DNA from: a virus
DNA length: 34,273 nucleotides
IMG/VR virus record: IMGVR_UViG_3300032282_000329
Span: 1-34,273 of that record
Reading direction: 5' to 3' (one strand)
Made by a program: the position numbers and the translations under genes
Notes under the pieces: model-generated
Database searches by the model: none
What the model was told of the DNA's origin: nothing
The model's input: the letters and a program-made list of their open reading frames with translations, nothing else
Shown here: positions 7,311 through 34,273 of the stretch, piece after piece
How the letters are laid out: each line of letters opens with the position of its first letter
How positions within the stretch are numbered: position 1 is the stretch's first letter

Positions 7311-10300
7311 CTATTTATTCAATTGCTTTCTCATTGATTCTGTTTGCTCTGCAAGAGTAGACATTAATATCTTTAATCGAACAATTTCAGCCCGGCGCTC
7401 TTCCGCAGGGATAGTTTGATTATTCTCAATTAAACGAGACTGCTTGCGCAATTCAGCCAATTGTTTGCTGGTTTTATCGTACATCTTAGCCAAAGCAATA
7501 TCATTACCCTTCTCTGCCATAATCTTCTGAACCTTCTCAGAATCTCCTAGCTCTGCATAATGACGCATATCTGCTAATGCGGATTGTAAGTTGGCATTAT
7601 TCTGATAGAACTGAGTCATATACTTAGATTGAATTTCTGGCTCGGTTTTAATGAATCCCATAGCTAAGGTATCAATAACTGGTTTACGAACCTTAGTTCC
7701 CTCAGAGAACGGCTCTACTGCTAGATCAGCGGTTGATGCAGCGGTAGCACCCAACCAGCCAAAATAAGCTTTAATACCGTAATCTACTTGCACAGGAGAG
7801 AAGCCTTGAGCCTGTGGATTAAATGTCAGGATCTTGGCTGCACCTTCAGATATGCCACCTAATGCAATTGCCAAGCCGCTAGTATTGTTATTAATGCGCT
7901 CTTGTTTCGATAAGTTCTGCATACCAGCAGATTCAATTGGAGCGCTGGTAAAGCTATCCTTATTGGCATACAAATCAATTAAAGGCTTAACCATCTGTGG
8001 AGTTGGATTCAAAGAGAATGTATCCATCAGAATATGATTTAGACGATCAAAGAATACTTTACCCTCTACGCCTTCATCAGCCATCTGCTCATAGGTACGC
8101 TCTGCAATAGTTCCTAATGCGCCAATTTCAAACGGCTTAGGAATACGGTATGCAGTATCGCCAATCTTGAACCACCAGAAGTTATCACGATCCCAGTCTT
8201 CACGGCGCTTGAAGTCTTCGTCATCTTTGTACATGGAGTACAAGGACAATGAGGCAAGCATTACAGCGCCAGAGATAGTGGCAAAGCGCATAGCTTTTTG
8301 TTTATCGCTAACGTCTATAGGTTTACCGGTGGTTGCGTTGCAGATAACACGGTATGTTGGGGTAATACCATCACGGCCTAGCTTGTACAGACCTTGTAAG
8401 CGGGCGTTAAAGAATGGCACTACAGAGCCAATGACCTTAATGGCACGGAACTGACCTTGCATAGAGAAGTCCATTAAATCACGAGCTGCATAGGAGGCTT
8501 CTAAGTGGGTCTTACCGCTGTCAATTAGCTTCTGGTATAGGGCTAGACGGTTGGCGTTTTCAAACTTGTTACCTTGCTCGTTATACCAATCCAATGCATC
8601 TTGTAGCTTACCCTTAATCTTGTCTGGTGTATCAAGGATATGGTTAGCATTTACACCTTTATCTACTAGACGCTTGATTAATTTAGCTTGATTGCCTTCA
8701 TGGGCAGTACCCATTTCAAAAATACCACCGCCAGCTAATGCAGCCATGAATGTAGGATGACCATCCTTACTCATTGACAATCCGTTGTATACGTTGCTAA
8801 ACATATTAGGACCAAGCTCAGAAATAGCGGCAGACTGAATTGAATCGCGGATTAAGTTGCGTACTTTGTATGCTGGGCTAAGGGTAATCCCGTATCTCAA
8901 TGCATTAGTAAATCCTTTGGCAATATCTAAAAACTGAGACTTAGGGCCAAGATAAGAAATTGTGGAAATAGCATCTACTAGATCTGGGTCTGATAGCTCG
9001 TAGTGAACTACCTTGCCGTCTTTCATTACCTTAACGGAATCTTTTGGATACTTGCCATCCATAGGTTTAGCTTCTTGAGCGGCGCCCATTCTTTGGGCGG
9101 CATCAATTGTTTTAACGGCTGCTTGGTTTTTCATGGCAGCAGATAGAATATGAGACCAGTTGAGAAGAACGTTCTCCATTAAGTCGTTAACTTTCTTTTC
9201 GCCACCTTTTAATGCTTTGCTAAACTGTTGACCAGTTAACTTGGCTGCTGCACTAACGGACTGCACGTCACCATCTTCCATTTGTTTATAAAACGGAATG
9301 TAATAAATATCATTTGCAAACTTTTCGTATCCAACTGGGTTGTCTTCAAGCTCTTTAATTTTTGTTTTCTTTTCCGAGTTCGATAACTTGCTATTTTTAA
9401 TTTTCTCTATTTCTTGTTTAGTGGTTCCTATTAAACCAGTCTGCAATGCAACATTAAGAACAGACCTATTTAACTCATTCTCTTCGCTTAGAGCTTTCTC
9501 ATAAACTGCTTTGCGTGATTGACCGTTTAAGGTGCCTTGCACTAATTGATTTCTACCAGCCACCAAGTCCGCTGGGAATGAACGCTTATTTGCAGGAAGA
9601 TTAGCATCACGGCTTAAAGCTTTCCAGCTTTGGTACTGGTCTACTTCAGATCCAACTGGCTCAAGAATTTTTAAAAGACCTTTAGTGTTAGGTTTAATGT
9701 CTAATGCGCCATCACGAATATAAACTTGACCATATTCCAGCAACCCCTGTAGTCCTCCGTCAATAGACTTAGATAAGCGAGCCATCATATAAGCGGTTGG
9801 ATCGTATTTCTTGATAGTTCTAAACTCATCAAACATACCAATCATCATGCGCTCAAAGAAGTTTTTCTTTAGGCCTTCCATGCGCTCTTTGACAGTAGCT
9901 TGTTCTTGAGTAAATTGCTGACGTAACTTTTCTGCATAGGCAGGATCTACACCCTGCATAGGAGCTTTAAACTTCTCACGAGTTGGTACTTGTGCGCGAG
10001 TTTCTGTAACCGTAGGAGCCTTAGTTGGCGTCAACTTACCTTCTGCTGCACGTTCAAATACAGAATCAGCAGTGCGGAATCCTTTACCCATAAGCAGATT
10101 ACGTAGCTGACCAAGGAACTTGCGTACACGGTTAGCCAGTCCTTTAACCATTGGCGTTTGCTTTTGGTAATCAGCAAATGCGTGAGCAATAGCTTCTTCT
10201 AGCTGGATTTTTTGAGATTCGTTGCCGTAATTTTTTGGGTTAGCAATATCGTATTGTTTCATCCATTTGGACTTAGCCATGCTTTCTAAGGTTGCCCACT

Positions 10301-12785
10301 CTTTAGGAGAGAACATACCTAAATCCTTCATAGCGTGAAGGGCTTCATGGTTTAAAGTACGGATAGGATCTGAACTAGATAGTGATACACGGATTAAGTT
10401 ATCAAAGTAAGCACCGCTAATCTCATCTGTTTTACCTTCTAAAGTACGGACCAACTGCTCCTCAAACTTTAATCCAACGTTTTGTAGGCCCATGCGATCT
10501 AATGCTTTACGAGCATCTGCAGCAAGCTTCTTGCCATCAGCTACAAACTTGTCTGAATATGGCGTTTTAATTTCATATCTGTATGGTGCTGGAGGCTCTT
10601 TTTCTGGCGCACCTTTAAAAGTTTCTGCAGCCTTGATAGATTCTTCAGCCTCTATTGGCGCCCGTTCTTCAATTGTTGGAACTGACGGTATTTCTTCTCT
10701 AGCAAAAGCGGCCAACTGTGCTTCACGATTTTGTTTCTCTTCTTCTAGTTGATCTTTTTGATTGTATAAAGCTTCAACTTCTGCAATAGCATCTTTATTG
10801 GCAGCCGTAACAACTTGTTCGTTTGCGTATAAAGCTTTAACCTTATCTATAAATGCCCGCTCTCCAGCAACGTCAGTTGGATCATCAAACTCTTCTTGAG
10901 TAAGGATGCCATCTTCTAATGCTCTAGCTGTTAGATCATCAAGCGGACTTCCTTTTTTATCAAAATAGTTCTGAGCTTTTTTACCAATCTTATAGCCGCC
11001 CTTAGTTGGCTTAGGAACATTGGGTAATATCTCAAAGATTTGATCTTCTCTGATCTTATTCTTTTGTAACCAATCCTTAAACTCACCTTTGGCATCAACA
11101 ACTTCTCTTTCAGTTTTGCCAATTTGTTTTGAAACTTGTTTAATGTCATCTTTAAGAAATTGATTCTCAAATTCAAAAATATCTTTTTCGGTAGGATTAA
11201 CAACAACATTTTCGCTGTTTGGATTGAACGTAACTTTTTTTCCGGTAGCAGGATTTATGCCGCTAAATTTGCCATTTTCATTAATAATTCCTTCAAAAAA
11301 ATCAATCTTGTTTTTTCTCATTACCGCAAGAGTTTTTGTATCAGCATAACTTGCAAGCTTCGCCTGTTCAGCAGCTAATACTTCTGGAATTGCTGGGCGA
11401 ATAACTCCGCCTTCCATAGGGGCATTGGTAAACGCAGATTGCTGTGCTTTTAATGCATCTACTTTAGCTTGCTGAGTTGCAATCTCCTGTTGTTTCTTGT
11501 TGTAGATAGCATTGATCTTTTGCATTGCGGGAGAGTACTTACGAGCTTCCTCCATGCGAGCAGCCATGATTGCTTCTTTATCGCCGGGAATGGCATACGC
11601 TTCTGTAGAACCTAATGGGTATGTTCGCTTAAACTGTTCTTGAAACGCTGCCTCATCTGTTGGAGCAACACGCCCATCTGGAAATACAGTAAACGGAGTT
11701 AAATCTACCGTACCACCAACACCAGATACAGTTGGATCATAGGTTAGCTGCAATGGTACCTGTTGCGGTTCACCAGTCTCTGCTGCTCTTTGTTGAGCCA
11801 ATGCAAGATCACGGCCTGCTTGTGCCTTGTCAGATACGCGACCAATAATACCAATCGGTCCTAATAAGGCAGTAGCAAATGCAGTTTGTCCGTATTCTCT
11901 AAGAGCATCATCATCTGTTAAAGATAAACCAGCTTGCGCTCTTTCTAGAACTTGTTGACTAATTTCAGTAGGAACTTCGGCAGCAATACCTTTGGCTGTG
12001 CCTTTGGCAATAGTGGTCAGTAATGCTTCATCAGCAATCTTAGATCCACCAGCGCCAATTAATTTTCCTGCGGTTGGTCCCAATATCTTAGTGACCATGT
12101 TGCCGCCTAATGGAATCAATGTTCCAACCACATCTAATGCGGCTTGAGGAACTGCGGTGCCTGCAGCAGCGGCACGACTAATTTCTAAGGGTTTACCCTG
12201 AGCAGCTTGAGCTTCGGCTTGGCGTTGAATGTTGCCACCGTATTGCTGAATAAATGATGGAGCAGCTGCACCCGCAATACCACCAATCAAAGTACCAATA
12301 CCCGGTACAACAGATCCAGCGGCAGCACCTGCAGCAGCGCCACCTAATGTGGCAGCAATATTAGGGGCTTGTTCAGCGATGGCCTTGGGAATTTGAGAAA
12401 CCAACTCTCCAGCAGCGGGTAGTATTCCCTGCTCTTTATAAACCTGTTGTAGGCGTTCTAAGCTAGCTCCCTCACCCAACCTACGCTGAATGTCTGCTTG
12501 ACGCTCCTGCGCCCTTCTAGCGGCTTCTTCTCCGCCCTTTGTGACAGACTCTAATGCAGTCTGGCCAGCAGATACGGTTTGCTCAAATCCGCGACGCAAT
12601 GAAGTACCAACACCTTCTTTAGCGGCTGGCTTCTCTGGCGTATAGAGATGCGCAATAATTTCATCGTCTGTATAACCAGATTTTCTAGCGGCCTCAGCAT
12701 CAAAGCCTTTTTGTTGCCCTAAATAATCAGCAACCTCTGCTGGAGTATAGCCAGAACTTAGTGCGGCATTTACATCAAAAGCCAT
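7311..12785 (-). CDS. Giant ejected virion polyvalent protein (HExxH peptidase + LPD38-like)
   Basis: 1824 residues, by far the longest gene. Domains in order: two N-terminal copies of a GYT-x-x-E-[VI]-I/A-x-x-L helix motif (12-22 and 37-47); a glycine-zipper and hydrophobic stretch (about 138-178 and 210-235) able to enter a membrane; coiled-coil segments around 430-450 and 690-720; a zinc-peptidase-like region with HEALH at 813-817 and Glu863/Glu864 before AHAFADY as third-ligand candidates; and a C-terminal part from about 1300 (SPAYKVRNLIRDSIQ) to 1560 (RIPKPFEIG) that matches large polyvalent protein-associated domain 38. Such proteins are packed in the head and injected with the DNA. 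Inferred role: a membrane channel and proteolysis or host takeover on entry. It follows the transglycosylase gene by 12 bases. Confidence 0.75.
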   Translation of the reverse strand: MAFDVNAALSSGYTPAEVADYLGQQKGFDAEAARKSGYTDDEIIAHLYTPEKPAAKEGVGTSLRRGFEQTVSAGQTALESVTKGGEEAARRAQERQADIQRRLGEGASLERLQQVYKEQGILPAAGELVSQIPKAIAEQAPNIAATLGGAAAGAAAGSVVPGIGTLIGGIAGAAAPSFIQQYGGNIQRQAEAQAAQGKPLEISRAAAAGTAVPQAALDVVGTLIPLGGNMVTKILGPTAGKLIGAGGSKIADEALLTTIAKGTAKGIAAEVPTEISQQVLERAQAGLSLTDDDALREYGQTAFATALLGPIGIIGRVSDKAQAGRDLALAQQRAAETGEPQQVPLQLTYDPTVSGVGGTVDLTPFTVFPDGRVAPTDEAAFQEQFKRTYPLGSTEAYAIPGDKEAIMAARMEEARKYSPAMQKINAIYNKKQQEIATQQAKVDALKAQQSAFTNAPMEGGVIRPAIPEVLAAEQAKLASYADTKTLAVMRKNKIDFFEGIINENGKFSGINPATGKKVTFNPNSENVVVNPTEKDIFEFENQFLKDDIKQVSKQIGKTEREVVDAKGEFKDWLQKNKIREDQIFEILPNVPKPTKGGYKIGKKAQNYFDKKGSPLDDLTARALEDGILTQEEFDDPTDVAGERAFIDKVKALYANEQVVTAANKDAIAEVEALYNQKDQLEEEKQNREAQLAAFAREEIPSVPTIEERAPIEAEESIKAAETFKGAPEKEPPAPYRYEIKTPYSDKFVADGKKLAADARKALDRMGLQNVGLKFEEQLVRTLEGKTDEISGAYFDNLIRVSLSSSDPIRTLNHEALHAMKDLGMFSPKEWATLESMAKSKWMKQYDIANPKNYGNESQKIQLEEAIAHAFADYQKQTPMVKGLANRVRKFLGQLRNLLMGKGFRTADSVFERAAEGKLTPTKAPTVTETRAQVPTREKFKAPMQGVDPAYAEKLRQQFTQEQATVKERMEGLKKNFFERMMIGMFDEFRTIKKYDPTAYMMARLSKSIDGGLQGLLEYGQVYIRDGALDIKPNTKGLLKILEPVGSEVDQYQSWKALSRDANLPANKRSFPADLVAGRNQLVQGTLNGQSRKAVYEKALSEENELNRSVLNVALQTGLIGTTKQEIEKIKNSKLSNSEKKTKIKELEDNPVGYEKFANDIYYIPFYKQMEDGDVQSVSAAAKLTGQQFSKALKGGEKKVNDLMENVLLNWSHILSAAMKNQAAVKTIDAAQRMGAAQEAKPMDGKYPKDSVKVMKDGKVVHYELSDPDLVDAISTISYLGPKSQFLDIAKGFTNALRYGITLSPAYKVRNLIRDSIQSAAISELGPNMFSNVYNGLSMSKDGHPTFMAALAGGGIFEMGTAHEGNQAKLIKRLVDKGVNANHILDTPDKIKGKLQDALDWYNEQGNKFENANRLALYQKLIDSGKTHLEASYAARDLMDFSMQGQFRAIKVIGSVVPFFNARLQGLYKLGRDGITPTYRVICNATTGKPIDVSDKQKAMRFATISGAVMLASLSLYSMYKDDEDFKRREDWDRDNFWWFKIGDTAYRIPKPFEIGALGTIAERTYEQMADEGVEGKVFFDRLNHILMDTFSLNPTPQMVKPLIDLYANKDSFTSAPIESAGMQNLSKQERINNNTSGLAIALGGISEGAAKILTFNPQAQGFSPVQVDYGIKAYFGWLGATAASTADLAVEPFSEGTKVRKPVIDTLAMGFIKTEPEIQSKYMTQFYQNNANLQSALADMRHYAELGDSEKVQKIMAEKGNDIALAKMYDKTSKQLAELRKQSRLIENNQTIPAEERRAEIVRLKILMSTLAEQTESMRKQLNK

Positions 12786-18066: not shown

Positions 18067-18372
18067 TTAAACCTTTACTTTCAAAACATTGGCGTTAGAC
18101 GTATCTAGGTAAACCGAGCCTACCGTCAGGTTGGCATAATCGGCCTGTGTGGGTAGGCTAACTATCGTAGCCCCAGTAGCATTAGATTCTCTAAAACTAA
18201 GGGCGGAAAAGATGGTATTCCCAGTTCTAAAGGTAGACATAGCCGATACGCCCGGATTGTCTAGCTGGGAGAAGTACAGACGCAAGACGTTATTAAGCTG
18301 ATCCTGATATTGCTGGCTGTATTCAACCGGCGCAATCGGTAAGTTCGGGGCTTTAGTAGTACCAGTACTCAT
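18067..18372 (-). CDS. Small virion-associated protein
   Basis: 101 residues, tightly placed: its start overlaps the stop of the 715-residue gene by four bases. The middle (YSQQYQDQLNNVLRLYFSQL) is a helical segment and the C-terminus (YANLTVGSVYLDTSNANVLK) is beta-rich. I recognise this combination from phage structural operons, where it follows a large conserved virion protein, but no function is known to me. A minor head or tail component is the best inference. Confidence 0.6.
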   Translation of the reverse strand: MSTGTTKAPNLPIAPVEYSQQYQDQLNNVLRLYFSQLDNPGVSAMSTFRTGNTIFSALSFRESNATGATIVSLPTQADYANLTVGSVYLDTSNANVLKVKV

Positions 18373-20516
18373 CTGCGACCATCGTTTCTAATATCAATTC
18401 GTGGGGTTCCAAGCTGCCAAGATACACCTAAGCCGTCTGATGCTATACGGAAAGCCATCTGACGACCGCGTAAACGGGTATATACCTGACCAGTAAACTG
18501 CTGTACATTGTACTGCGGTACATTGGTAAAGTTGTCAGCACTAGTCGTGGTGGTAGTGTCAGCTACCTGATATGCAGATCCGCTGTTTTGGCGTGGTTTG
18601 AGATACATTGTTACAGCCGGATTAGCAACGCTGGAGTTATTAAAGTTCACGTCTGGCAGCATACGCCATACATATCCAAAGTTATGACCGTCTCCAATAT
18701 CAAAGTCTGATGACTGGACATAGGCAGAAATAGGCACTGTAGTATCCCCAGCGGCATCATCATTACCAACCTCATGGTAAATCACACGTCCTAATGGGTT
18801 TGCTTGGAAATCATAGCCAAATACGTCTGTAGCCATTGGGCTTTGGCGTAAGCTGGAATCAAGCCAAGAAGTACGCACTAATGTACCGTAATACCATACA
18901 CGGTCTAAGTAGTTATAGATAACATAACGGTCAACTAAAGTACTGTTTTCTGAACAATAAACCCACCATACTTCGTTATAGCCTTCGTTAGCACCAGCAT
19001 AGACTTGCCATGACTGATCTTTGTTAATGTCATTAAAGATGTACTGACGCAATGAGCAAGGAAGGGTTTCTACGCGTCCTGAATACATATAGAACTTGTC
19101 AGCGCCCATCCAGTATGTAACGTTATTAATAGTAATAACGGTGTTTGGACCCATGATGGAGATGTTATCCATCAATACGTTAAAGCCCCAAACATAGGGA
19201 GGCCCTAGATATTGCTGAGAGTAAATCGTAGAGTCTGTCAATACCAAGATCTCTTGACGGGTATTAATCGTTGTTACGATATAAGAACCGTGAGATAGAC
19301 GGAATTCACCAGACTGATTGGTAATAGCAGGCACCCATTCATATGGGTTTTCTTGGTCAGACCAGCGTACCAACATAGGATCAAATGTAGAGTTGCTATT
19401 GGTTGGATCATATGGGTTAGCACCATAAGCAATAACAAAGCGTTGAATATCTGAGGCAACTACTTCGCTAACCACTTTAGGAACCCATTGTCCAGATCCA
19501 GCAGAAACATTATTAGCTAGATCGGATAGATATTGACCGCGCTGGCTTAATCCTGTTGTTGCAGACCAATAGAAAATAGCACCGCCACGTGGAGCAAATA
19601 CTAAGTCTTGACCATAATTGTCATTAGTCCACAATCTAAGTTGTTGTCCTACTGTTACAGGAGCAGCATTACCCCATCCGTAGTAACCCCAAGGAGCCGC
19701 GCCCCAACCGTTACCTACGGTATAGACATCAAGGCCGGGTGGTACTTCATACTGGATAGTAATCAAACCACCGCTATTGATGACTTGAGATGTAGCAAAA
19801 GAAGCGTTAGCCGAGTTGCCGTCTGGAGTAGATGCTAAAGCAAAGAATGGACCGGTAGAGATATATTTCTGTGCCTGATGTTCGCCATTAATGGTAACGT
19901 TAGCAATACCACCTACAGAGGTAGCATTAGCAATAATCAAGAACTGGTTATCAATAGCGTTGGAGTTATCGTTAACCGCAAAGAAAGCGCTGGCTACGTT
20001 AGCTCCAAAAGTATGAGATGCGGCAGTAGTATTGTTATAACCACGAACACAGCCTGTTGCCACGTTAGAAGTCAATGCAGCATAGTAAATATGCTCGGTA
20101 TCAATTTTAATTAGCCCGTTATTCTGGGGAAAATAAGTGACATTAGCAAACTGCATGGTTGTAGTTGTAGCATTGATAGTACCCACTAACGTAGTGAATC
20201 CAGTAGAAATAACATTGGAATAGCTAATTGTGCTGGTAATAGGAGTAATGTCGTTATAGACACCACCGCTCTCAATGTAGTATTTTAAGTTAGTGCCTAT
20301 TCCAAGTAGGTTATCGTTTTGTAATGTAGTCCAGTTCCATAAAGAACGGCACATACCTAAGAAATAGTTAGCACTTAAACGCACCCAGCCACCAATCTTT
20401 TCTGGAAAGCCAGAGCGAAAACGAATATGATCTCCGTCGTAGTAACCACCCTCGTTGGCGTAGTCTGTACCTTCTCGGTTTAATCCGGGGCGGAGTTGTA
20501 GTTTTTGCAATGGCAT
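18369..20516 (-). CDS. Large conserved virion structural protein
   Basis: 715 residues. The N-terminus, LQLRPGLNREGTDYANEGG, then DGDHIRFRSGFPEKIGGW, matches a strongly conserved start of a phage virion protein family. The rest is beta-rich with many Trp, Tyr and Asn residues and repeated short strands (for example WGYYGWG, then WTNDNYGQDLVF), which suggests a propeller or multi-domain beta structure, as in tail hub, nozzle or adaptor proteins. It is expressed between endolysin and internal proteins in the late operon. Which particle position it occupies cannot be said; a tail-hub/nozzle position is my inference. Start is an ATG six bases after the endolysin gene's stop. Confidence 0.65.
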   Translation of the reverse strand: MPLQKLQLRPGLNREGTDYANEGGYYDGDHIRFRSGFPEKIGGWVRLSANYFLGMCRSLWNWTTLQNDNLLGIGTNLKYYIESGGVYNDITPITSTISYSNVISTGFTTLVGTINATTTTMQFANVTYFPQNNGLIKIDTEHIYYAALTSNVATGCVRGYNNTTAASHTFGANVASAFFAVNDNSNAIDNQFLIIANATSVGGIANVTINGEHQAQKYISTGPFFALASTPDGNSANASFATSQVINSGGLITIQYEVPPGLDVYTVGNGWGAAPWGYYGWGNAAPVTVGQQLRLWTNDNYGQDLVFAPRGGAIFYWSATTGLSQRGQYLSDLANNVSAGSGQWVPKVVSEVVASDIQRFVIAYGANPYDPTNSNSTFDPMLVRWSDQENPYEWVPAITNQSGEFRLSHGSYIVTTINTRQEILVLTDSTIYSQQYLGPPYVWGFNVLMDNISIMGPNTVITINNVTYWMGADKFYMYSGRVETLPCSLRQYIFNDINKDQSWQVYAGANEGYNEVWWVYCSENSTLVDRYVIYNYLDRVWYYGTLVRTSWLDSSLRQSPMATDVFGYDFQANPLGRVIYHEVGNDDAAGDTTVPISAYVQSSDFDIGDGHNFGYVWRMLPDVNFNNSSVANPAVTMYLKPRQNSGSAYQVADTTTTTSADNFTNVPQYNVQQFTGQVYTRLRGRQMAFRIASDGLGVSWQLGTPRIDIRNDGRR

Positions 20517-21721: not shown

Positions 21722-22137
21722 TACTTAATTCCTGCTTGTTGTAAGATCCAATCCTGTAGGGCTATGGTTTGGAGGGTGGTTTCAGAACAGGATTCAGCAA
21801 GCTGGTAGTAGGAGGCGGTTTCATTAGTTCCGCTGGAGGGGTTGGAAATGCTGGGCAATTTACTGCCACTGGTACTGGAGTGCTGCAACCCGCCATAATA
21901 ATTACGAACGGCAGCAAGCTTGCTTTCATAGTCATTTTTAATTCCTTTACTTACTAAGTCTTGTTGTTTAACGATAGAGTCATTCTTGGCTTCTTGTATC
22001 TTTCCTTGAGCTTCTACCTGTGCTTGGAACGCCACGAACTTATCATGCTCTCCGCTATAGCCTTTATAGTACGCAAAACCAAGCGCGGCAATAATGGCAC
22101 CGATCTTTATCCAAGTGAGAATTGGTAATGGAAACAT
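21721..22137 (-). CDS. Rz: Rz-like i-spanin
   Basis: 138 residues. An N-terminal membrane helix (about 8-24) is followed by a charged coiled-coil region (29-78) and a C-terminal segment with CSETTLQTIALQDWILQQ, the layout of inner-membrane spanins that span the periplasm. It works with an outer-membrane lipoprotein (Rz1) to fuse the two membranes in the last step of lysis. The Rz1 gene is nested inside it in the +1 frame (21762..21935). Its start shares one base with the stop of the GIY-YIG gene upstream and its stop shares one base with the start of the next gene. Confidence 0.8.
   Translation of the reverse strand: MFPLPILTWIKIGAIIAALGFAYYKGYSGEHDKFVAFQAQVEAQGKIQEAKNDSIVKQQDLVSKGIKNDYESKLAAVRNYYGGLQHSSTSGSKLPSISNPSSGTNETASYYQLAESCSETTLQTIALQDWILQQAGIK
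21762..21935 (-). CDS. Rz1: Rz1-like o-spanin lipoprotein, nested in Rz
   Basis: 57 residues in the +1 frame inside Rz. MTMKASLLPFVII is a short signal sequence that ends in a lipobox MAGC (Cys17). The mature part (CSTPVPVAVNCPAF, then PTPPAELMKPPP and a KPPSKP end) is very proline-rich, exactly the character of phage Rz1 proteins. AAAGGA lies seven bases before the ATG. It would be lipidated, go to the outer membrane and bind Rz across the periplasm. Fully embedded +1 placement is the lambda type of arrangement. The gene is under 60 codons and easily missed. Confidence 0.85.
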   Translation of the reverse strand: MTMKASLLPFVIIMAGCSTPVPVAVNCPAFPTPPAELMKPPPTTSLLNPVLKPPSKP

Positions 22138-22637
22138 TAGTTAGCATCCTTTTTTGCTTTTCTGATAACCCAAGCGGCTTTCATTTTATCGATAGTTTCT
22201 TGGCTTCTTTTTCTGCCACGATTCAATTCCCATAGTTTTTCAAGAACCTTCATGTTAACTATGCCCTTGTGCGCTGCAGCAGATTTTGCAACAGCAACAG
22301 GATCTTTTGGCCTGCCAAGATGAGCTTTAGATATTTTTTGTTTTGTTTCTTCTGAGTGTTTAATGCCAGATAGACCTTCACCGCCGTCAGTATAGTTGGC
22401 AAGGTCATATCCCATATCTCTAAAGCAAGAAATCAATAAGATCTCATGGTCTAAGGCTTCTTGTTCAGTACTCCAGTGGGCTAAAATTTCTGCCTGAAAC
22501 CCATACTTGTTTGCTATATTTGTCCAATGAGCATTCCTTCTAGCAACGGCTAAATGACGAGATTCCTTACCCTTGCCGATATAAAATATCTTGCCAGTAT
22601 CGTTTCTAGTGTGAGCGTAAGTGTAGTAGCTTGTCAT
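22137..22637 (-). CDS. GIY-YIG homing endonuclease with NUMOD3-like motif (copy 1)
   Basis: 166 residues. YYTYAH followed by IFYIGKGK gives the GIY-YIG core, with Tyr5, Tyr19, Arg27, Glu65 and Asn81 as catalytic candidates. After the core come TDGGEGLSGIKHSEETKQ and RGRKRSQETIDKMK, NUMOD3-like DNA-binding repeats of phage homing endonucleases. It cuts DNA at a specific site so that the gene is copied into alleles lacking it. It lies cleanly in the lysis cassette between the DUF7338-like protein and Rz, with one- and four-base overlaps. It is a paralogue of the protein at 32739..33272. Confidence 0.85.
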   Translation of the reverse strand: MTSYYTYAHTRNDTGKIFYIGKGKESRHLAVARRNAHWTNIANKYGFQAEILAHWSTEQEALDHEILLISCFRDMGYDLANYTDGGEGLSGIKHSEETKQKISKAHLGRPKDPVAVAKSAAAHKGIVNMKVLEKLWELNRGRKRSQETIDKMKAAWVIRKAKKDAN

Positions 22638-23383: not shown

Positions 23384-24838
23384 TTACGCTGTATATGTAC
23401 CGGAAGCTGTAAACTTCACAATCGTATTAGCGCCAGCAGTAAAGATTGTTGGAGCGCCTGTATACACGCCAGAGTAGTATGCAGTTGGAATGGATAGAAT
23501 TACTACACCAGATCCACCAGCTTTTCCACCTTGTGCATTTGTACCGCCACCACCGCCACCACCTGTATTAATTGTTCCAGCAGTAGCATTATCGCCGGGA
23601 TATGTTCCTCCATTACCACCACCGCCAGCGCCTCCAGCGCCACCAGAGCCACCTAATGAGTCACCGTTTGGACCAGATCCACCGCCTCCACCGCCAGCAT
23701 AATATTCTGCAGTTCCAGTAATCGTTGTGTAGTAACCTGTACCACCAGCACCACCGTTTGCGTATGGATTTCCTAAACCATTAGAACCAGCAACACTTTG
23801 TCCACCACCACCACCGCCACCGCCTGCGCTGTTTCCGGGAACGCCAGCAGCAGATCCTCCGCTAGTACCTTGTCCTGATGTTCCAGTTCCGGGGCTACCA
23901 CCACCGTAATATCCATTACCACCGCCTCCACCAGAACCACCATTGCCACCATTTCCGTAAGCGTTTGAACCTAGTCCACCACCAACAGCGGTAACTGTTC
24001 CAGTTAATGAAGACTGAGATCCAGCAGTAGCTGCCGCTCCTCCAGCTCCAACAATAATAGTTAATACTGTTCCGGGGTCAACAGAGCGGTTGCTAGCAAT
24101 TAAACCACCCGCACCACCACCACCGCCGCCGCCAGAACCACCGCCACCACCGCCAGCTACAGTAATGTAAGTAATTGTATATACGCCTTGTGGATATGTT
24201 TGGAACCGAACCCAAGTGGAATTTGAATAACCTTCATAAAAATCTAATTCAGAGTTATAGCGAATTAAACCTTCAATTGGAGAGGTTGTTCTAACAGCAG
24301 AATTTCCAACCGGCAAATAAAATTGCCCTGTGCTAGAGTTGGCAAATAAGTCTTTTCCAAGGGTAATGTTGTTTGTAGCTACTAAGTTGTTTGCAGTAGC
24401 TGTGCCAGTAACAGTTAAATCACCACTAACATAATTAAACTGAGTCGCGCTATAGACGTTGGCGCCGTCTGTAAAAAGTACTTCACTGGCAGCATTTGCT
24501 ACACTAATATTAGATCCAGTGCCTGTAGTCAGGGTTACGGTATTGCCAGTACGGTTACGAACAATATAGACCTTTTGCTGACCTGCTGGAGCTACAAGGA
24601 ACTGAGGAGAGGTAATGGGGCCATTAAGGATTAATACCGCGTTACGCGCTTCATCCGACAAACCGTTAAAGTTAGTCAGCGTATAGGTTGCATCACCCAT
24701 TGGAATGGTTACAACACCAGTAATTGCCTGTTCTAGCAATGTTCCTAGGTTATAGTTGGTGGTTGTCCCCCAAACACCCGCTTGTTCGCCGGTTCCAATT
24801 AACTGGAGTTTTAGTGAGGTTGAATAGGTGCTAGGCAT
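23384..24838 (-). CDS. Tail fibre/adhesin with glycine-rich domain (copy A)
   Basis: 484 residues. The N-terminal 130 residues (PSTYSTSLKLQLIGTGEQAG and so on) form a beta-rich virion-attachment part seen in other phage fibres. Around residues 170-210 lies a GQFYLPVGN ... RTTSPIEGLIRYNSE motif like those of the two paralogues downstream. From about residue 225 runs a glycine-rich region (GGGG runs) ending in a C-terminal tail VILSIPTAYYSG ... NTIVKFTASGTYTA. Glycine-rich stretches like this can fold as polyglycine-II sandwiches, as in the phage S16 adhesin gp38, and would bind the receptor. It ends one base before the holin start. Confidence 0.7.
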   Translation of the reverse strand: MPSTYSTSLKLQLIGTGEQAGVWGTTTNYNLGTLLEQAITGVVTIPMGDATYTLTNFNGLSDEARNAVLILNGPITSPQFLVAPAGQQKVYIVRNRTGNTVTLTTGTGSNISVANAASEVLFTDGANVYSATQFNYVSGDLTVTGTATANNLVATNNITLGKDLFANSSTGQFYLPVGNSAVRTTSPIEGLIRYNSELDFYEGYSNSTWVRFQTYPQGVYTITYITVAGGGGGGSGGGGGGGAGGLIASNRSVDPGTVLTIIVGAGGAAATAGSQSSLTGTVTAVGGGLGSNAYGNGGNGGSGGGGGNGYYGGGSPGTGTSGQGTSGGSAAGVPGNSAGGGGGGGGQSVAGSNGLGNPYANGGAGGTGYYTTITGTAEYYAGGGGGGSGPNGDSLGGSGGAGGAGGGGNGGTYPGDNATAGTINTGGGGGGGTNAQGGKAGGSGVVILSIPTAYYSGVYTGAPTIFTAGANTIVKFTASGTYTA

Positions 24839-24843
24839 GTTGT

Positions 24844-25806
24844 CTATCCTTGATAATCGTTTACGTTAATCCAACTTGTATTTGCAGTATTGTTAATAGT
24901 AGTCCAAGTTCCGGCATTAGCCGTTACAATATTAGCCCAATTTGGGGTTTGTCCGTCGTTGATTGTAATCCAACCACGGGTGAAAAGCGACTCATAAATG
25001 GTCATTAAATCGGTTACAACTCCTGCAAACGCGGCAGAAGCAGCTTCTGTATCGGTTAGGCTATAGGATTCAACCAAAGCCCCTACCCAGTCATAGCGGG
25101 CGCTGACGGTATCAACTAAGGTTACGGTATCTGTGTAGTTTCCTAAAGCAGAACGGATGCCATCATAGGTATCCAACAAAGTTACAGTTTCGTCGCTAGC
25201 TACAAAGAACTGGAATTGACCCGGAGCCTCATCTGTAATATCAACAGAATCTACTACATCGCCAGCAAAATTAGCGGTTGAGGAATATAGGTCAGTTAGG
25301 GTTACAGTATCTTCTGTGTTTACCGCAAAGCCTTGTGGGCCTAATTCTACAGTAGTTAAAGTAACGTTTTCAGCCGTGGTTGTTGTAAATACTACCTGAG
25401 TAGACTGGGTTTCTGTAAGGTTTGCGGTCTCGGAGCTATCTGCATAAAAGGCTACTTGAGTACTAATTGCTTCTGTTAGGTCTATAGTTTCTTCTTGGGT
25501 AGCCGATGTATTCCATGCACCTTCTGGGGTGTCGGTTAAGGTTATTGTTTCACTAGACTGGGCAGATGTATTCCAAGCGCCGTTTGCAGCATCCAATAAA
25601 GATATAGTGTCATTGCTAAATACATAAAACTCAAATACGGGGCTGTCATCTGTAGATAGGGTAAACGACTCAAATGCAATGCCGCTAAAGTTTGCAGGCC
25701 CCGCAAATTGGTCTGTTAAAGTAAAAGACTCATCAGTCTGTAGGTTGTAGCTATTCCCCGCCAAAGAAGCGAAAGGAGACTGGGCAAATGAGCTTATACC
25801 GAACAT
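24844..25806 (-). CDS. Appendage protein made of twelve 20-residue repeats
   Basis: 320 residues. The N-terminus (MFGISSFAQSPFASL) has the FG-x-x-x-FAQ-x-PFA motif of phage appendage proteins. Residues 28-267 are twelve successive 20-residue units with the pattern [VIF]-[TS]-L-x-[DE] at the start and [SED]-x-E-T at the end, with no insertion or deletion. Two adjacent units share GAWNTSA. The C-terminus (268-320) has Trp-centred short repeats (GWITIN, NWANIV, TWTTIN, SWINVN). The regular beta pattern suggests a solenoid or shaft. It lies among glycine-rich fibre genes, so a fibre or spike shaft is likely. Confidence 0.65.
   Translation of the reverse strand: MFGISSFAQSPFASLAGNSYNLQTDESFTLTDQFAGPANFSGIAFESFTLSTDDSPVFEFYVFSNDTISLLDAANGAWNTSAQSSETITLTDTPEGAWNTSATQEETIDLTEAISTQVAFYADSSETANLTETQSTQVVFTTTTAENVTLTTVELGPQGFAVNTEDTVTLTDLYSSTANFAGDVVDSVDITDEAPGQFQFFVASDETVTLLDTYDGIRSALGNYTDTVTLVDTVSARYDWVGALVESYSLTDTEAASAAFAGVVTDLMTIYESLFTRGWITINDGQTPNWANIVTANAGTWTTINNTANTSWINVNDYQG
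25006..25725 (-). repeat. 12 x 60-bp coding repeat (20-residue units)
   Basis: Starting at each [VIFYA]-[TSDN]-[LI], the successive distances are exactly 20 residues for all twelve units, giving 720 bases with no frame slip. Most units begin like VTLTD or ITLTD and end in ET, DT, or ES. DNA identity between units is modest, so the repeat is kept at the protein level. Confidence 0.85.
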
Positions 25807-25808
25807 AA

Positions 25809-26873
25809 TTAAGCTGTGTAACTACCGCTAGAAGTAAATTTCAAAATGGTGTTAGATCCAGAAGTAGTTACGGTAGGACTTCCAGTAGTTGTACCAGAGT
25901 AGTTTGTTGTAGGAACTGAAATAACCACTACACCAGAGCCGCCATTACCACCAGTAAATGATCCTGCACTTCCACCTCCGGTAGATCCACCACCTCCACC
26001 ACCTGTGTTAGTTGTACCAGCAGTACCACTTCCAGTAGCTCCACCAGCACCACCTCCGCCTGCTCCGCCAGAAGAATTGCTTCCTGTATTACCGTTACCG
26101 CCGCCACCGCCACCGGCGTAGGTTACAGATGAGCCTGTGATTGTTGAAACCGCGCCGTTTCCACCGTTACCGCCAATAAAAGTATTTGTCCCATTAAAAC
26201 CAGCTTGTGCTGCTCCACCGCCACCACCGCCTCCAGCAGAACCACCAGTAGAATTACCGCCAGCATAACCTTGAGAAGTAGTTGGATTTCCTCCGTTTGC
26301 AGTTCCGCCACCACCAGCACCTCCGCCAGAGCCACCATCTCTACCAGTATTGCTAGAGTATGAACCACCGCCACCACCACCAATTGCGGTAGTTAATCCA
26401 GTAATAGAAGAATTACCGCCGTTTGTACCAACTAATGTTCCAGAAGTTCCACCTGCGCCACCATTACCAACAGTAACAGTGTAGGTTGTTCCAATACTCA
26501 TGTACGAACTGCCAGTGACTAATCCACCGCCACCTCCTCCTCCTGAAGTATTCCAGCCACCTCCGCCGCCGCCTGCAACAATAAGGTAAGAGATCGCGTA
26601 CGAAGATTGTTTAATAGTTACCCAGCTACCACCAACATAACCCTCTAATCCATAGCCATTATCAGAGTTATATCTAATCATGCCGTTTACACCAGTAGGT
26701 CTTTGGGCTGTTGTACCAACAGGAACAGTAATTGCTCCTGTAGATGCAAAGTTCGCATTTTGATCTGTACCAATAATAACGGCACTTGTTCCATTGGTTT
26801 GTAGTGCAAGTATTCCAGAGGCGTCAACGGTTTGCACTAACCCGCTAGCATTTGCGTTGATAAATGTCGTCAT
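25809..26873 (-). CDS. Glycine-rich tail fibre/adhesin (copy B)
   Basis: 354 residues. The N-terminus (ALQTNGTSAVIIGTDQNANF, then TAQRP-x-G-V-N-GMIRYN) is a trimeric-fibre-type head. After VGGSWVTIKQSSYAIS comes SYLIVAGGGGGGW and a region of GGGG runs, then VVVISVPTTNYSG ... GSPTVTTSGSNTILKFTSSG and the final SYTA. The start overlaps the stop of copy C by four bases. It is a close paralogue of copy C, without the Ig-like domain. The Gly-rich part is the probable receptor-binding surface. Confidence 0.7.
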   Translation of the reverse strand: MTTFINANASGLVQTVDASGILALQTNGTSAVIIGTDQNANFASTGAITVPVGTTAQRPTGVNGMIRYNSDNGYGLEGYVGGSWVTIKQSSYAISYLIVAGGGGGGWNTSGGGGGGGLVTGSSYMSIGTTYTVTVGNGGAGGTSGTLVGTNGGNSSITGLTTAIGGGGGGSYSSNTGRDGGSGGGAGGGGTANGGNPTTSQGYAGGNSTGGSAGGGGGGGAAQAGFNGTNTFIGGNGGNGAVSTITGSSVTYAGGGGGGNGNTGSNSSGGAGGGGAGGATGSGTAGTTNTGGGGGGSTGGGSAGSFTGGNGGSGVVVISVPTTNYSGTTTGSPTVTTSGSNTILKFTSSGSYTA

Positions 26874-28243
26874 GCTGTATATGTTCCGCTAGATGTAAAT
26901 TTAATAATTGTGTTAGATCCTGATGTGGTTACTGTTGGGCTACCTGTAGTGGTTCCAGTATATCTAGCTGTTGGCACGGAAAGAATTACCACGCCAGAAC
27001 CACCAGATCCACCATTTACACCACCACCACCGCCACCACCGCCTCCACCACCTGTGTTAGCTGATGCATTATTACCGTTGCTGTAATTGTTTGCTCCATT
27101 GGCACCTCCACCAAGGCCACCACCACCACCGCCAGCATCAATAGAATCGCCGTTTAGACCGGGACCACCGCCTCCGCCACCAGCATAGTAAACAGAAGAT
27201 CCAGTAATACTAGAAGCTAACCCGTTGCCTCCAGCTCCTCCATTTGGGAATGCGTTTCCAGCACCATTGCTACCAGTAGCCCCAGCTCCACCACCACCTC
27301 CGCCACCGCCTGCAGAGCTACCGCCTCCGCCAGCTCCAGAACCACCGTTGCTACCTTGACCGCCTGTTCCAGCACCAGCTCCACCGCCGCCATAGTAAGC
27401 ATTACCACCACCGCCACCTGAACCGCCTGATCCGCCATTGTTGTAAGATCCAGCTCCGTTACCACCACCGTTAGCTGTAACTGAAAGTCCTGTTCCTACT
27501 AAAGTAGAGTTTGTTCCAGCGCCAGTGCTTCCGCCACCGCCACCAATTGTTGCTGTAAAGACGACCGCAGGGGTAACCGTTACAGATGATGTTAATAATC
27601 CACCAGCACCGCCGCCGCCACCTGTTCCATAACCACCTCCGCCTCCGCCTGCCACTACCAAATAGCTCATACTATAAGTTGCCAATACTGGGCCAACAGA
27701 GTTTGATGTAGCTGCAGAAGCAGAGTTACCGTAAGAGTTATATGCGGTTACATTGCATGAGATGTTTGCGCCAACCTGAGTTGCCGTTAGTACAAATGTA
27801 TTTGCGGTAGCATTAGAAGAAATAGCAACGGAATTGGCTAGCCATTGATAGTAGTATCCAGTTGGAGTATTTGACCATGTACCGTTTGTAGTAGATAAAG
27901 TAGAGTTAATTGCTGGTGTTCCAGAAACCACAGGCGCAACAGCATTTACTGGCGTTAAAATTGAAGTTACACTGAACCAACTGTTATTTACATAAGTTTC
28001 AATATTTTGATAACCAGTGTTATATCTAAGCATTCCATTCGTAGGGCTTACTGGTCGTTGGGCAATACCACCGCTTGGTAAAATTAAAGCGCCAGTAGAT
28101 GTGCAGTTAGCGTTTTGGTCGGAACCAATAACTATTGCATTGGACCCATTTGTTTGAAATGCGAGCGTGGAAGTATTGTCTGCGCTTGTAACAATTGCAG
28201 AAAAGGTAGAAGAGTTTCCAGCTTGCGCATTTATGGATGACAT
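26870..28243 (-). CDS. Glycine-rich tail fibre/adhesin with Ig-like domain (copy C)
   Basis: 457 residues. The head (LAFQTNGSNAIVIGSDQNAN, then AQRPVSPTNGMLRYN) matches copy B. Residues about 98-186 form an inserted Ig-like domain: PVVSGTPAINSTLSTTNGTW, then YYYQWLANSVAISS, then NISCNVTAYNSYGNS, with the W and Y residues of that fold. Then SMSYLVVAGGGGGGYG begins the glycine-rich region, which ends in GSPTVTTSGSNTIIKFTSSG and TYTA. Ig-like modules in phage virions often bind sugars weakly. The domain sits at the joint between head and Gly-rich parts. Confidence 0.75.
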   Translation of the reverse strand: MSSINAQAGNSSTFSAIVTSADNTSTLAFQTNGSNAIVIGSDQNANCTSTGALILPSGGIAQRPVSPTNGMLRYNTGYQNIETYVNNSWFSVTSILTPVNAVAPVVSGTPAINSTLSTTNGTWSNTPTGYYYQWLANSVAISSNATANTFVLTATQVGANISCNVTAYNSYGNSASAATSNSVGPVLATYSMSYLVVAGGGGGGYGTGGGGGAGGLLTSSVTVTPAVVFTATIGGGGGSTGAGTNSTLVGTGLSVTANGGGNGAGSYNNGGSGGSGGGGGNAYYGGGGAGAGTGGQGSNGGSGAGGGGSSAGGGGGGGGAGATGSNGAGNAFPNGGAGGNGLASSITGSSVYYAGGGGGGPGLNGDSIDAGGGGGGLGGGANGANNYSNGNNASANTGGGGGGGGGGGVNGGSGGSGVVILSVPTARYTGTTTGSPTVTTSGSNTIIKFTSSGTYTA

Positions 28244-30837: not shown

Positions 30838-32748
30838 TTAAATAACCACCCATTTCTGACCGCTGGCAATTGTCGTAGATACGCCATTGGCTGTATAGAC
30901 TGGACCAACTGTAAAGCCATTCTGTCCTGCAGCCACTGTAGCATTTGACGTAATATTTACGTTATTGATAATAATTGAACTATTACCAGAAGTTAACGCT
31001 GCATCAACTGTTGACCAAGATAATACGTTTGCGCCGTCTGTAGTTAAGTATTTATTTGCATTTCCAGCTTGGGCTGGCAGGATTGTATTGGAAGACACCA
31101 CTTGAGCTGCACTACCGTTAAAGCTTACGCCCGATGCTGCACCGTTTCCAGCGCTAGTAAAGGTTAATGTGCTGACAACAGAACCCGCAGAAATGTTAGC
31201 TGGAGACTGCCAAATAGGGGCAGTAGCATTACCAGTAGACTGCAACAGAAAGGTATTAGTACCAAAGTTTCCGTTAAACGCTACGGCGTTGGTTGAATTG
31301 ATGGTTATAGCGTCGGTATTACTGCTATTGGTAACAATGCGAACACCGTTATTTGTAGTAGTGCCTAGAACCAATTCTCCGCTTACGGAATAAACATATA
31401 CCGCATTTGGTAGATTGAAGCTTCCAGAACCAGCAAAGGTAGATCCATTTATACCAAAGTTACCGTAGTAAGAACTCTTAGTTCCCAGATCATTGCTGAC
31501 CACGTAATCGGCAGAAGCGGAATTTCCACTGCTTGTATTTTGAATAATGAACTGACCATAACCGTTTTGGCTGGTAATAAACGATCCAAGAATACCTGTA
31601 TCTGAGTAACCTAAATTGCCGTTATTAAATGCGCCATAAGCTACGTTAGCGGTTACATCTGCAGTAGCATTAAAGTAAACAGAACTTACAGTGTTGTTTA
31701 AAAACGTCAAATTTGCTGAAGAAGCTAAAGCATTTGCGCCAGCGCCGTAAGGAATGCGACCAGCAGTTAATGTCGTTAAGCCTGTACCACCAGCAGTTAC
31801 TGGTAATGTTCCAGTCGTTAGTGCGCTAGTAGATGTTGCATATACTGCACCGCCAGAAGTAAAGGTTGTGAGTCCTGTTCCACCATAACCAGTAGCAATT
31901 GTAGATCCATTCCATGTTGAATTGGAAATGGTAGAGCCACCAAAGTTGGCGGTTGTTGTACCCCAGTTTACAGACGCTGGAAGGTATGCGTGTTTACTCC
32001 AAGTACCAGCAGTTGAGCTATTTGCTAGTAGTGTAATAACATCAATACCACCACCCGGTATTAAATCTATTAAACCAGAGGATGCATCATTAACGGTTAA
32101 GTTGCCGGTAGAGTCATTATTAAATACGAACGAAGCGCCAGCAACTAAAGTAGATGCGGTTGGCAGTTGGAATGTTTGATCTAAAGTACCAGTTAAACGC
32201 TGATAATAAGTAGATGCGGCGGTTAATGTAGTGGTTGTGCCTGCAGATGTAGTTGCAGTAAAGCCGGGCAGAGAGTTATTAAACTGGATGTTAACGTTTG
32301 CATCACGTAGTACAACGCTATTAGCACCGCTAGAGGCAGTAACTCCAGTACCGCCGTAAGCTACGCCAATTGTATTAGCGTTCCATGTACCTAAAGTAAT
32401 ATTGCCTAAAGCGGATACGTTGCCGCTAGCGTCTAAATAAACGGCTTCTTCCGCAGGATAAGTAACAAATACGCTTTGAGTGCCAGAGCTAAAGTTGGTT
32501 AAGTTGCCAGCATTGCTAGAGGATATGACGGTGTTACGCACCACAGAATTATTAGCGCTGTAGTAAGTACCAATACCAACTTCCCACTCAGCACCGCCAA
32601 CTGTAGCGATGGTGTAGTAGGTCGTGTTGCCGTTCCCAACACCATTTGCAAATGTTTGGTATCCAGTTGTTGCGCCGAGCAATACAACAGTACCAGTACC
32701 GGGGCTACTCGCCGTCTCTAATACACGGTCTTTTAACACTAATGGCAT
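30838..32748 (-). CDS. Long tail fibre protein with GGTG[LV]T repeats
   Basis: 636 residues. The N-terminus (MPLVLKDRVLETASSPGTGT, then VLLGATTGYQ and EWEVGIGTYY) is a well-known start of phage fibre or baseplate-attached proteins. The central part has three GGTG-[VL]-T copies, two inside YGGTG (AYGGTGVTA, GYGGTGLTT, AGGTGLTTL), a motif of phage tail fibres, separated by beta-rich spacers. The C-terminus (SSIIINNVNITSNATVAAGQ and so on) is beta-helix-like. It probably forms the main fibre shaft. Its start lies 10 bases inside the end of the GIY-YIG gene. Confidence 0.75.
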   Translation of the reverse strand: MPLVLKDRVLETASSPGTGTVVLLGATTGYQTFANGVGNGNTTYYTIATVGGAEWEVGIGTYYSANNSVVRNTVISSSNAGNLTNFSSGTQSVFVTYPAEEAVYLDASGNVSALGNITLGTWNANTIGVAYGGTGVTASSGANSVVLRDANVNIQFNNSLPGFTATTSAGTTTTLTAASTYYQRLTGTLDQTFQLPTASTLVAGASFVFNNDSTGNLTVNDASSGLIDLIPGGGIDVITLLANSSTAGTWSKHAYLPASVNWGTTTANFGGSTISNSTWNGSTIATGYGGTGLTTFTSGGAVYATSTSALTTGTLPVTAGGTGLTTLTAGRIPYGAGANALASSANLTFLNNTVSSVYFNATADVTANVAYGAFNNGNLGYSDTGILGSFITSQNGYGQFIIQNTSSGNSASADYVVSNDLGTKSSYYGNFGINGSTFAGSGSFNLPNAVYVYSVSGELVLGTTTNNGVRIVTNSSNTDAITINSTNAVAFNGNFGTNTFLLQSTGNATAPIWQSPANISAGSVVSTLTFTSAGNGAASGVSFNGSAAQVVSSNTILPAQAGNANKYLTTDGANVLSWSTVDAALTSGNSSIIINNVNITSNATVAAGQNGFTVGPVYTANGVSTTIASGQKWVVI

Positions 32749-33272
32749 TGTTTAGTCTCCAGCAGTTCTCTGCGCCATATATAGCCTTTGTGAGACTGTC
32801 TGGTGCCGTTGATGCATTTTATAACATTTGCATGCTGAAAACCAGCCTCAACTAAGGCATTTGACCCATCAAAAGCAATTAGTTCGCCACTGTTAATGTG
32901 TGTACCAATCCATTTGTACTTACGTGCGTTAATGTTTCCAGTATTAAAAGCAGAACCTTTAAAGAATTCACTAACTTGTTTTTTTCTAGCTTCAGTATGC
33001 TTCATGCCAGATGGACCTTCTCCACCGTCAGACAAATTGGTAAGCTTATGACCAAGATCTTTAAAGCATTTGATCAACAGTATTTCATGGTCAAACGCTT
33101 CTGCTTCAGTCTTCCAGTTTGCTAATATTTGAACATCAGGATTGCCATGTTTTTCAACAACCCTGCGCCAATATATATTTCTTCCACGATGACTATGCGC
33201 ACGTCTTCCGTTACCTTTTCCAATGTAGAAAAGGCGACCTTCAGGAGTGTAGTGAGCGTATGTATAGAACAC
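32739..33272 (-). CDS. GIY-YIG homing endonuclease (copy 2)
   Basis: 177 residues, with a GTG start preceded by AGGCGG. FYTYAH and LFYIGKGNGRR give the GIY-YIG core (Tyr16-Gly18, Arg23/24, Glu63, Asn79), then SDGGEGPSGMKHTEARKKQ as a NUMOD3-like repeat. The C-terminal part (RKYKWIGTHINSGELIAFDG, then SNALVEAGFQHANVIKCING) looks like a NUMOD/IENR-type DNA-binding helix, which copy 1 lacks. Core residues such as DHEILLI are identical in both copies. It overlaps the fibre gene by 10 bases and lies directly after a terminator-like hairpin. It mobilises itself to related phages. Confidence 0.85.
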   Translation of the reverse strand: MFYTYAHYTPEGRLFYIGKGNGRRAHSHRGRNIYWRRVVEKHGNPDVQILANWKTEAEAFDHEILLIKCFKDLGHKLTNLSDGGEGPSGMKHTEARKKQVSEFFKGSAFNTGNINARKYKWIGTHINSGELIAFDGSNALVEAGFQHANVIKCINGTRQSHKGYIWRRELLETKQCH

Positions 33273-33909: not shown

Positions 33910-34273
33910 CTAACTTATGCGAATAATAGCGGAGTTTGCAAGATCCGCTGGAAAATAAATGTTAAAGGTTTGATCATTTGTGGTGATCGTACTACCAAAG
34001 TTCAATACAGCAACTGACGCATTATTAAAGGAACTATTATAAATCAAAGCTCCCGCAGCGCTAATTGTAGACGAACTCCACGAAGTATTGGCAAAAGAAA
34101 TGAACGCCACGTTACCCGTGTTGGTAGGGGTTTGGGTTACGGTTAAGGTATTTCCACCAGCCGTATAGCCAGTTCCATTGGCTTCTCCTGTAGACGTATA
34201 TGCGGTCGTGGAGTTACTAATGCTGGCAGACCCCTGATATAGGGCGATTTTAAAAGTGTTAGCCGAGAAGTTA
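33910..34273 (-). CDS. Conserved phage appendage protein, partial (start outside window)
   Basis: The frame stays open to the right edge, so only the C-terminal 120 residues are present. The visible part reads FKIALYQGSASISNSTTAYT, then an ANGTGYTAGG block, then SWSSSTISAAGALIYNSSFN and a VAVLNFGSTI strand, ending SAIIRIS. This matches a common phage protein with the pattern FK-x-ALY ... TAY ... GTGYTAGG ... GALIYN ... AV-x-x-DFG, found in appendage operons. Function unknown, likely virion-associated. An internal GTG at 34110 is not the start. It lies nine bases before the next gene. Confidence 0.65.
   Translation of the reverse strand, partial: NFSANTFKIALYQGSASISNSTTAYTSTGEANGTGYTAGGNTLTVTQTPTNTGNVAFISFANTSWSSSTISAAGALIYNSSFNNASVAVLNFGSTITTNDQTFNIYFPADLANSAIIRIS

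What the first reader, a model, noticed from the sequence alone, without database searches (positions are those of the whole stretch)
25006..25725. Twelve exact 20-residue repeats without a single indel
Counting from each [VIFYA]-[TSDN]-[LI] step gives twenty residues twelve times in a row. Strict length with diverged sequence points to a regular fold in which each 20-residue turn is one layer. Two adjacent pairs (GAWNTSA in two; STQV-x-F in two) hint at later unit duplication. I do not know a named domain for this repeat.
Basis: seen in the sequence. Interest (0 to 1): 0.6.

Follow-up and report, generated by a model that had tools for sequence, protein, structure and literature searches.

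The report
Phage tail-fibre shaft of 20-residue repeats
A protein in an uncultured short-tailed phage is built from twelve perfectly regular 20-residue units between a fixed front peptide and a fixed tryptophan-rich end; it belongs to a widespread but undescribed family that most likely forms stackable tail-fibre rods of variable length.

Summary
The minus-strand ORF 25806..24844 (320 aa) holds twelve consecutive units of exactly 20 residues; self-similarity at lag 20 is far above all 5000 shuffles. No described family or solved structure matches it. It is one member of a phage family: 145 non-redundant relatives from IMG/VR share a 16-residue N-terminal motif (MFGIxxFAQxPFASL), 4 to 28 units (mode 12) and a C-terminal array with a tryptophan every 11 residues. 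1489 of 1629 unit-to-unit intervals are exactly 20. The middle cassette can be exchanged for a different Gly/Val repeat while both ends stay. The gene sits in a tight operon directly upstream of a tail-fibre-like gene. All ten relatives' contigs tested encode an SU10-type tail adaptor. Best explanation: a tail-appendage (fibre or spike) rod of a short-tailed phage, two short beta-strands per unit, probably an oligomer. The fold is not settled: both AlphaFold monomer models have pLDDT of about 49, the covariation test was inconclusive, and no multimer prediction could be run. "One layer per unit" remains a hypothesis.

The parts
24844..25806 (-). repeat protein gene, 320 aa; 2 nt after the previous gene and 5 nt before the next one
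   Evidence: ORF lists; relatives on IMG/VR contigs
25759..25806 (-). N-terminal motif MFGISSFAQSPFASLA (residues 1-16), probable docking peptide
   Evidence: 16-residue consensus over 145 relatives; also found in front of other bodies
25732..25758 (-). half-unit before the array (residues 17-25, second strand of a unit 0)
   Evidence: register of the repeat
25012..25731 (-). twelve 20-residue units, consensus [ED]-[TS]-[VIF]-[TSD]-L-T-D-x7-F-x5
24973..25011 (-). half-unit after the array (residues 266-278, first strand of a unit 13)
   Evidence: register of the repeat; the family segmentation counts it as unit 13
24847..24972 (-). C-terminal tryptophan array, W279, W290, W301, W312 (period 11)
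   Evidence: W-W spacing 11 in 420 of 451 family intervals; W columns invariant or nearly so
23384..24838 (-). downstream partner gene, tail-fibre-like N-terminal domain (MPSTYSTSLKLQLIGTGEQAGVWG) plus Gly-rich C-terminal part
   Evidence: same N-terminal type directly downstream in at least 84 of 124 relatives; residues 1-125 are 34% identical to the 'putative tail fiber protein' of Roseobacter phage CRP-901; PF21722
25809..26873 (-). upstream neighbour, Gly-rich tail protein
   Evidence: PF21722, phrog_2295
18369..20516 (-). 715-aa homologue of phage stabilization protein (P22 gp10 type, tail nozzle)
   Evidence: tblastn to records annotated stabilization protein; phrog_3287
33910..34272 (-). 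phrog_644 protein, the gene type that precedes the repeat-protein region in L007, where an SU10_adaptor gene lies further upstream

Best explanation
The protein is a structural appendage (fibre or spike rod) of the tail of a short-tailed (podovirus-like) phage. A short conserved N-terminal peptide docks it to the tail machine. Twelve and two half 20-residue units, each predicted to form two short beta-strands, build a regular rod whose length is set by the number of units. The C-terminal 11-residue tryptophan repeats form the far end, or a contact to the neighbouring fibre encoded by the next gene. The rod is probably a homo-oligomer, most likely a trimer, in which strands of different chains pack together. 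The strict 20-residue pitch is needed to keep the layers in register, so new units can be added or lost only whole. Shown: repeat, family, constant ends, cassette exchange, operon and tail-module context. Inferred: virion location, docking role, oligomer, receptor-related function.
For: Tail module: partner gene directly downstream with gaps mostly of 3-12 nt, homologous to an annotated tail fibre; stabilization protein homologue; SU10-type adaptor on 10 of 10 relatives' contigs, 0 of 14 controls. In phage SU10 the tail-fibre genes (gp12, gp13, gp16) are numbered between adaptor (gp11) and nozzle (gp17), fibres are trimers, and the N-termini of the long fibre bind the adaptor (PMC9509320). Modular build: same ends with two types of repeat, and the same repeat and W-array at the end of 1100-1300-aa proteins at the same locus. 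Unit number 4-28 with length fixed at 20 in 91.4%. Two strands per unit in both models. No relative confirmed in a scan of genomes of 84,980 bacterial and archaeal species.
Against: No proteomics or structure of any member. AlphaFold models are poor (pLDDT 49.7 and 48.9), so the strand pattern is only indicative; low confidence fits an obligate oligomer but also fits a disordered or badly predicted chain. No matched PDB fold. Some members (for example L019) have Ala-rich units that could be helical. The window itself ends before the adaptor gene.
Confidence: 0.6

Rival explanations
1. A monomeric beta-solenoid: each 20-residue unit is one coil, and the coil stack itself is the rod.
For: Fixed even-numbered pitch, hydrophobic residues mostly at odd positions (3, 5, 15, 19), which alternates inward and outward as in beta-solenoids; same-position couplings between neighbouring units in the raw covariation analysis.
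Against: AlphaFold2 usually predicts regular solenoids of near-identical repeats well (own knowledge), yet gave pLDDT 49 for the very regular L125. The couplings vanish when neighbours are shuffled within proteins. The nearly invariant acidic residue at position 1 has the parity of the hydrophobic ones and would have to be stacked inside or at a corner. No solenoid match below E 0.3.
Confidence: 0.25
2. A metal-stapled acidic scaffold: the two nearly invariant acidic residues of each unit (positions 1 and 7) bind Ca2+ between units, so that the rod folds only in the presence of divalent ions.
For: Position 1 is acidic in 97% and position 7 in 79% of units, with 2.8 acidic but only 0.34 basic residues per unit; 43 D+E against 3 K+R in this protein.
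Against: No known calcium-binding family was matched. Acidic, surface-exposed phage fibres are common. Not exclusive of the best explanation.
Confidence: 0.15
3. A head decoration or internal virion protein rather than a tail appendage.
For: No virion localisation exists for any member; the N-terminal motif also heads a 119-aa charged protein next to scaffold- and capsid-like genes in L169 and L170.
Against: The repeat gene itself lies next to the tail-fibre-like gene in most relatives, and fusion to 1100-1300-aa proteins at that locus is typical of appendages.
Confidence: 0.12

Closest known systems
SU10 (Kuravirus) tail fibres gp12, gp13, gp16 between adaptor gp11 and nozzle gp17
   Same: Place in the tail gene module next to adaptor and nozzle homologues; N-terminal segment used for docking (proposed here, shown in SU10)
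   Different: No sequence match was found; arrays of 20-residue units are not mentioned in the passages of the SU10 paper read here
Triple beta-spiral shafts (adenovirus fibre)
   Same: Repeated short unit with two beta-strands, variable number of repeats, constant ends
   Different: Known shafts use shorter units (about 15 residues, own knowledge; 17 residues per 15 A in PMC7565637) with a conserved Gly/Pro turn (own knowledge); here 20 residues and no conserved Gly/Pro (at most 16% at any position)
Orsay virus beta-bracelet fibre (PMC7565637)
   Same: Fixed-length strand-loop repeats with hydrophobic interior and acidic loops
   Different: 8-residue unit, pentamer, no sequence match
Phage DSL-LC04 protein WJZ48131 (OR003939)
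   Same: Same gene position between adaptor and stabilization protein, same tryptophan-repeat end
   Different: GWGxGxWG front motif and the Gly/Val repeat type of mostly 22 residues instead of the E..L.D type

Membership tests
Any Pfam / NCBIfam / PHROG family | score above cut-off or E below 1e-3 | tested here: not met
   window protein: none in PHROGs, only sub-threshold XRCC4 in Pfam, none in NCBIfam. Among 30 relatives only two PHROGs of unknown function score below 1e-3, each in a single member (phrog_12240, phrog_22249)
Triple beta-spiral (adenovirus type) | about 15-residue repeat with conserved Gly/Pro in the turn (own knowledge) | tested here: not met
   20-residue unit; Gly+Pro at most 16% at any position
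Triple beta-spiral (adenovirus type) | intertwined trimer | not testable with these tools
   only monomer prediction offered; both models low confidence
Pentapeptide-repeat beta-helix (20 residues per coil) | A(D/N)Lxx every 5 residues | tested here: not met
   lag-5 self-score is -0.94, below background
Short-tailed phage tail appendage | gene in the tail module, next to fibre, adaptor or nozzle genes | tested here: met
Short-tailed phage tail appendage | protein present on the tail of the virion | not testable with these tools
   no proteomics or microscopy available

The most novel reading that the evidence does not exclude
The units form a so far undescribed oligomeric beta-fibre fold with a 20-residue pitch, in which different repeat sequences (the E..L.D type and the TGVxASGxVG type of 20 or 22 residues) are interchangeable cassettes between one docking peptide and one tip, so that phages change fibre length and surface by swapping and counting whole units.
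Probability: 0.25. Interest if true: 0.65.

Novelty: new variant of a known kind. Interest (0 to 1): 0.42.

Why it matters
Phage fibres decide host range, and fibrous beta-folds are few. A family of over a hundred phage proteins with strict whole-unit length changes and no curated entry would give a natural ruler series (4 to 28 units) for studying how fibre length evolves, a candidate new fibrous fold, and an annotation for many 'hypothetical' genes next to adaptor and fibre genes.

Tried and rejected
Sequence search of solved structures with four queries: nothing meaningful. Foldseek of both low-confidence models against PDB: best E 0.3, meaningless; of the L125 model against BFVD: best matches are uncharacterised proteins of uncultured Caudovirales phages. 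XRCC4 Pfam match: below cut-off, chance. Covariation between units: raw same-position couplings at 19, 3 and 5 did not survive shuffling within proteins, so they are not used as evidence for stacking. Intra-unit i,i+4 couplings were not followed up; they may reflect unit subtypes rather than a helix. Ice-binding (TxT ladder) reading: rejected, because the Thr at positions 2, 4 and 6 is not kept in relatives. tblastn of three members against 50,697 phage records found nothing; only the exchanged-repeat type found a relative. Genome-contig scan: none.

Full report
What is there. The window is a 34,273-base virus record, a linear fragment from IMG/VR. The ORF 25806..24844 on the minus strand encodes 320 residues. 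Mean BLOSUM62 self-similarity at lags 20, 40 and 60 is 1.00, 0.89 and 0.97, while every other lag tested is negative; the best value over all lags in 5000 shuffles is 0.07. Position 5 is Leu in 11 of 12 units, position 1 is acidic in all, position 7 is Asp or Glu in 10, position 15 is aromatic in 9. A half-unit stands on each side of the array.

A family, not a single oddity. Scans of the viral collection gave 145 non-redundant relatives. They share a start, M-F-G-[IF]-x-x-F-[AS]-Q-x-P-F-[AS]-x-L; 4 to 28 units, most often 12; and an end in which tryptophans follow one another every 11 residues (420 of 451 intervals), in most cases with a pattern like W-x-x-[IV]-N-D-x-Q-[TS]-x-x. Of 1629 unit intervals, 1489 (91.4%) are exactly 20; most others are 21 (109) or 18 (16). 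In the 63-protein subset listed one by one, the odd intervals recur at particular unit positions, often with one residue added or two removed in the part between the two strands or around the acidic residue. So length is under strong constraint and units come and go whole. Close relatives keep the identity of each unit by index (17.1/20 identical at the same index against 5.0/20 elsewhere for L002), distant ones do not (L125: 5.7 and 5.7), and some arrays look fresh (up to 19/20 identical units in L122, 18/20 in L125), which points to repeated birth and loss of units.

Exchangeable cassette. L107, L115 and L162 have the same N-terminal motif and the same tryptophan end but a quite different repeat (TGVxASGxVGTV) with a pitch of 20 or 22. 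Profile comparison aligns the two groups, most clearly at both ends (probability 99.2%, E 7e-20). In L014 and L019 the 20-residue units and the tryptophan end sit at the C-terminus of 1100-1300-aa proteins at the same locus. The N-terminal motif also heads a 119-aa charged protein in L169, L170, L171 and a 117-aa one in L173, so it is a portable piece, probably a docking peptide.

Gene context. The gene is packed 2 nt after a Gly-rich tail protein and 5 nt before a gene whose N-terminal 125 residues are 34% identical to the 'putative tail fiber protein' of Roseobacter phage CRP-901. That neighbour type lies directly downstream in at least 84 of 124 relatives, with gaps mostly of 3-12 nt. Further along the window come a DUF7338 protein, an endolysin (phrog_181) and a 715-aa homologue of phage stabilization proteins, then proteins resembling lytic tail and large virion proteins. 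On the contigs of ten relatives, SU10-type adaptor proteins are present in all ten (best E 5e-30; none in 14 control genomes). The window's own fragment has no adaptor match; its last gene, at the record's end, is the phrog_644 type that in L007 lies downstream of the adaptor. In phage SU10 fibre genes gp12, gp13 and gp16 are numbered between adaptor gp11 and nozzle gp17; fibres are trimers and the N-termini of the long fibre bind the adaptor (PMC9509320). By position and modular build the repeat protein is best read as a tail appendage.

Fold. Two AlphaFold2 runs (window protein with 40 sequences; L125 with 30) gave low confidence (pLDDT 49.7 and 48.9; pTM 0.33 and 0.43), but both place two short strands at similar positions in nearly every unit. 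This would be expected of a chain that folds only as an oligomer, but it does not prove it. A direct-coupling analysis over four-unit windows showed like-with-like couplings at positions 19, 3 and 5 of neighbouring units, which did not hold against shuffles within proteins. The stacking of units therefore remains open. Each unit carries 2.8 acidic and 0.34 basic residues on average, which makes ion-dependent stability a reasonable test.

Known or new. No Pfam, NCBIfam or PHROG family claims the window protein, and no solved structure resembles it in sequence. Sequence features of the adenovirus triple beta-spiral and of pentapeptide repeats are not met. It is a new variant of a known kind: repetitive beta-structured phage fibre proteins.

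Noticed in passing
window 22137-22637 and 32739-33272 (-): Two homing-endonuclease-like genes (phrog_314; the first with NUMOD3 and weak GIY-YIG matches) sit inside the tail module.
   Followed up: no
window 23384-24838, 25809-26873, 26870-28243 (-): Three neighbouring genes match phrog_2295 with similar Gly-rich C-terminal parts (PF21722 in two of them), like paralogues around the repeat gene.
   Followed up: no
L169, L170 3001-3357: The MFGFASFAELPFA motif begins a 119-aa charged, repeat-free protein next to scaffold- and capsid-like genes.
   Followed up: partly
L022-L026, L029: The tryptophan end (NDxQTPNW) also closes other large repetitive proteins with unrelated units (for example NPxTR...PPDFLT, VTGQAA).
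   Followed up: no
window 7311-12785 (-): 1824-aa protein whose C-terminal half resembles large proteins of Achromobacter, Pelagibacter and Bacillus phages (phrog_18222; one hit annotated large polyvalent protein).
   Followed up: partly
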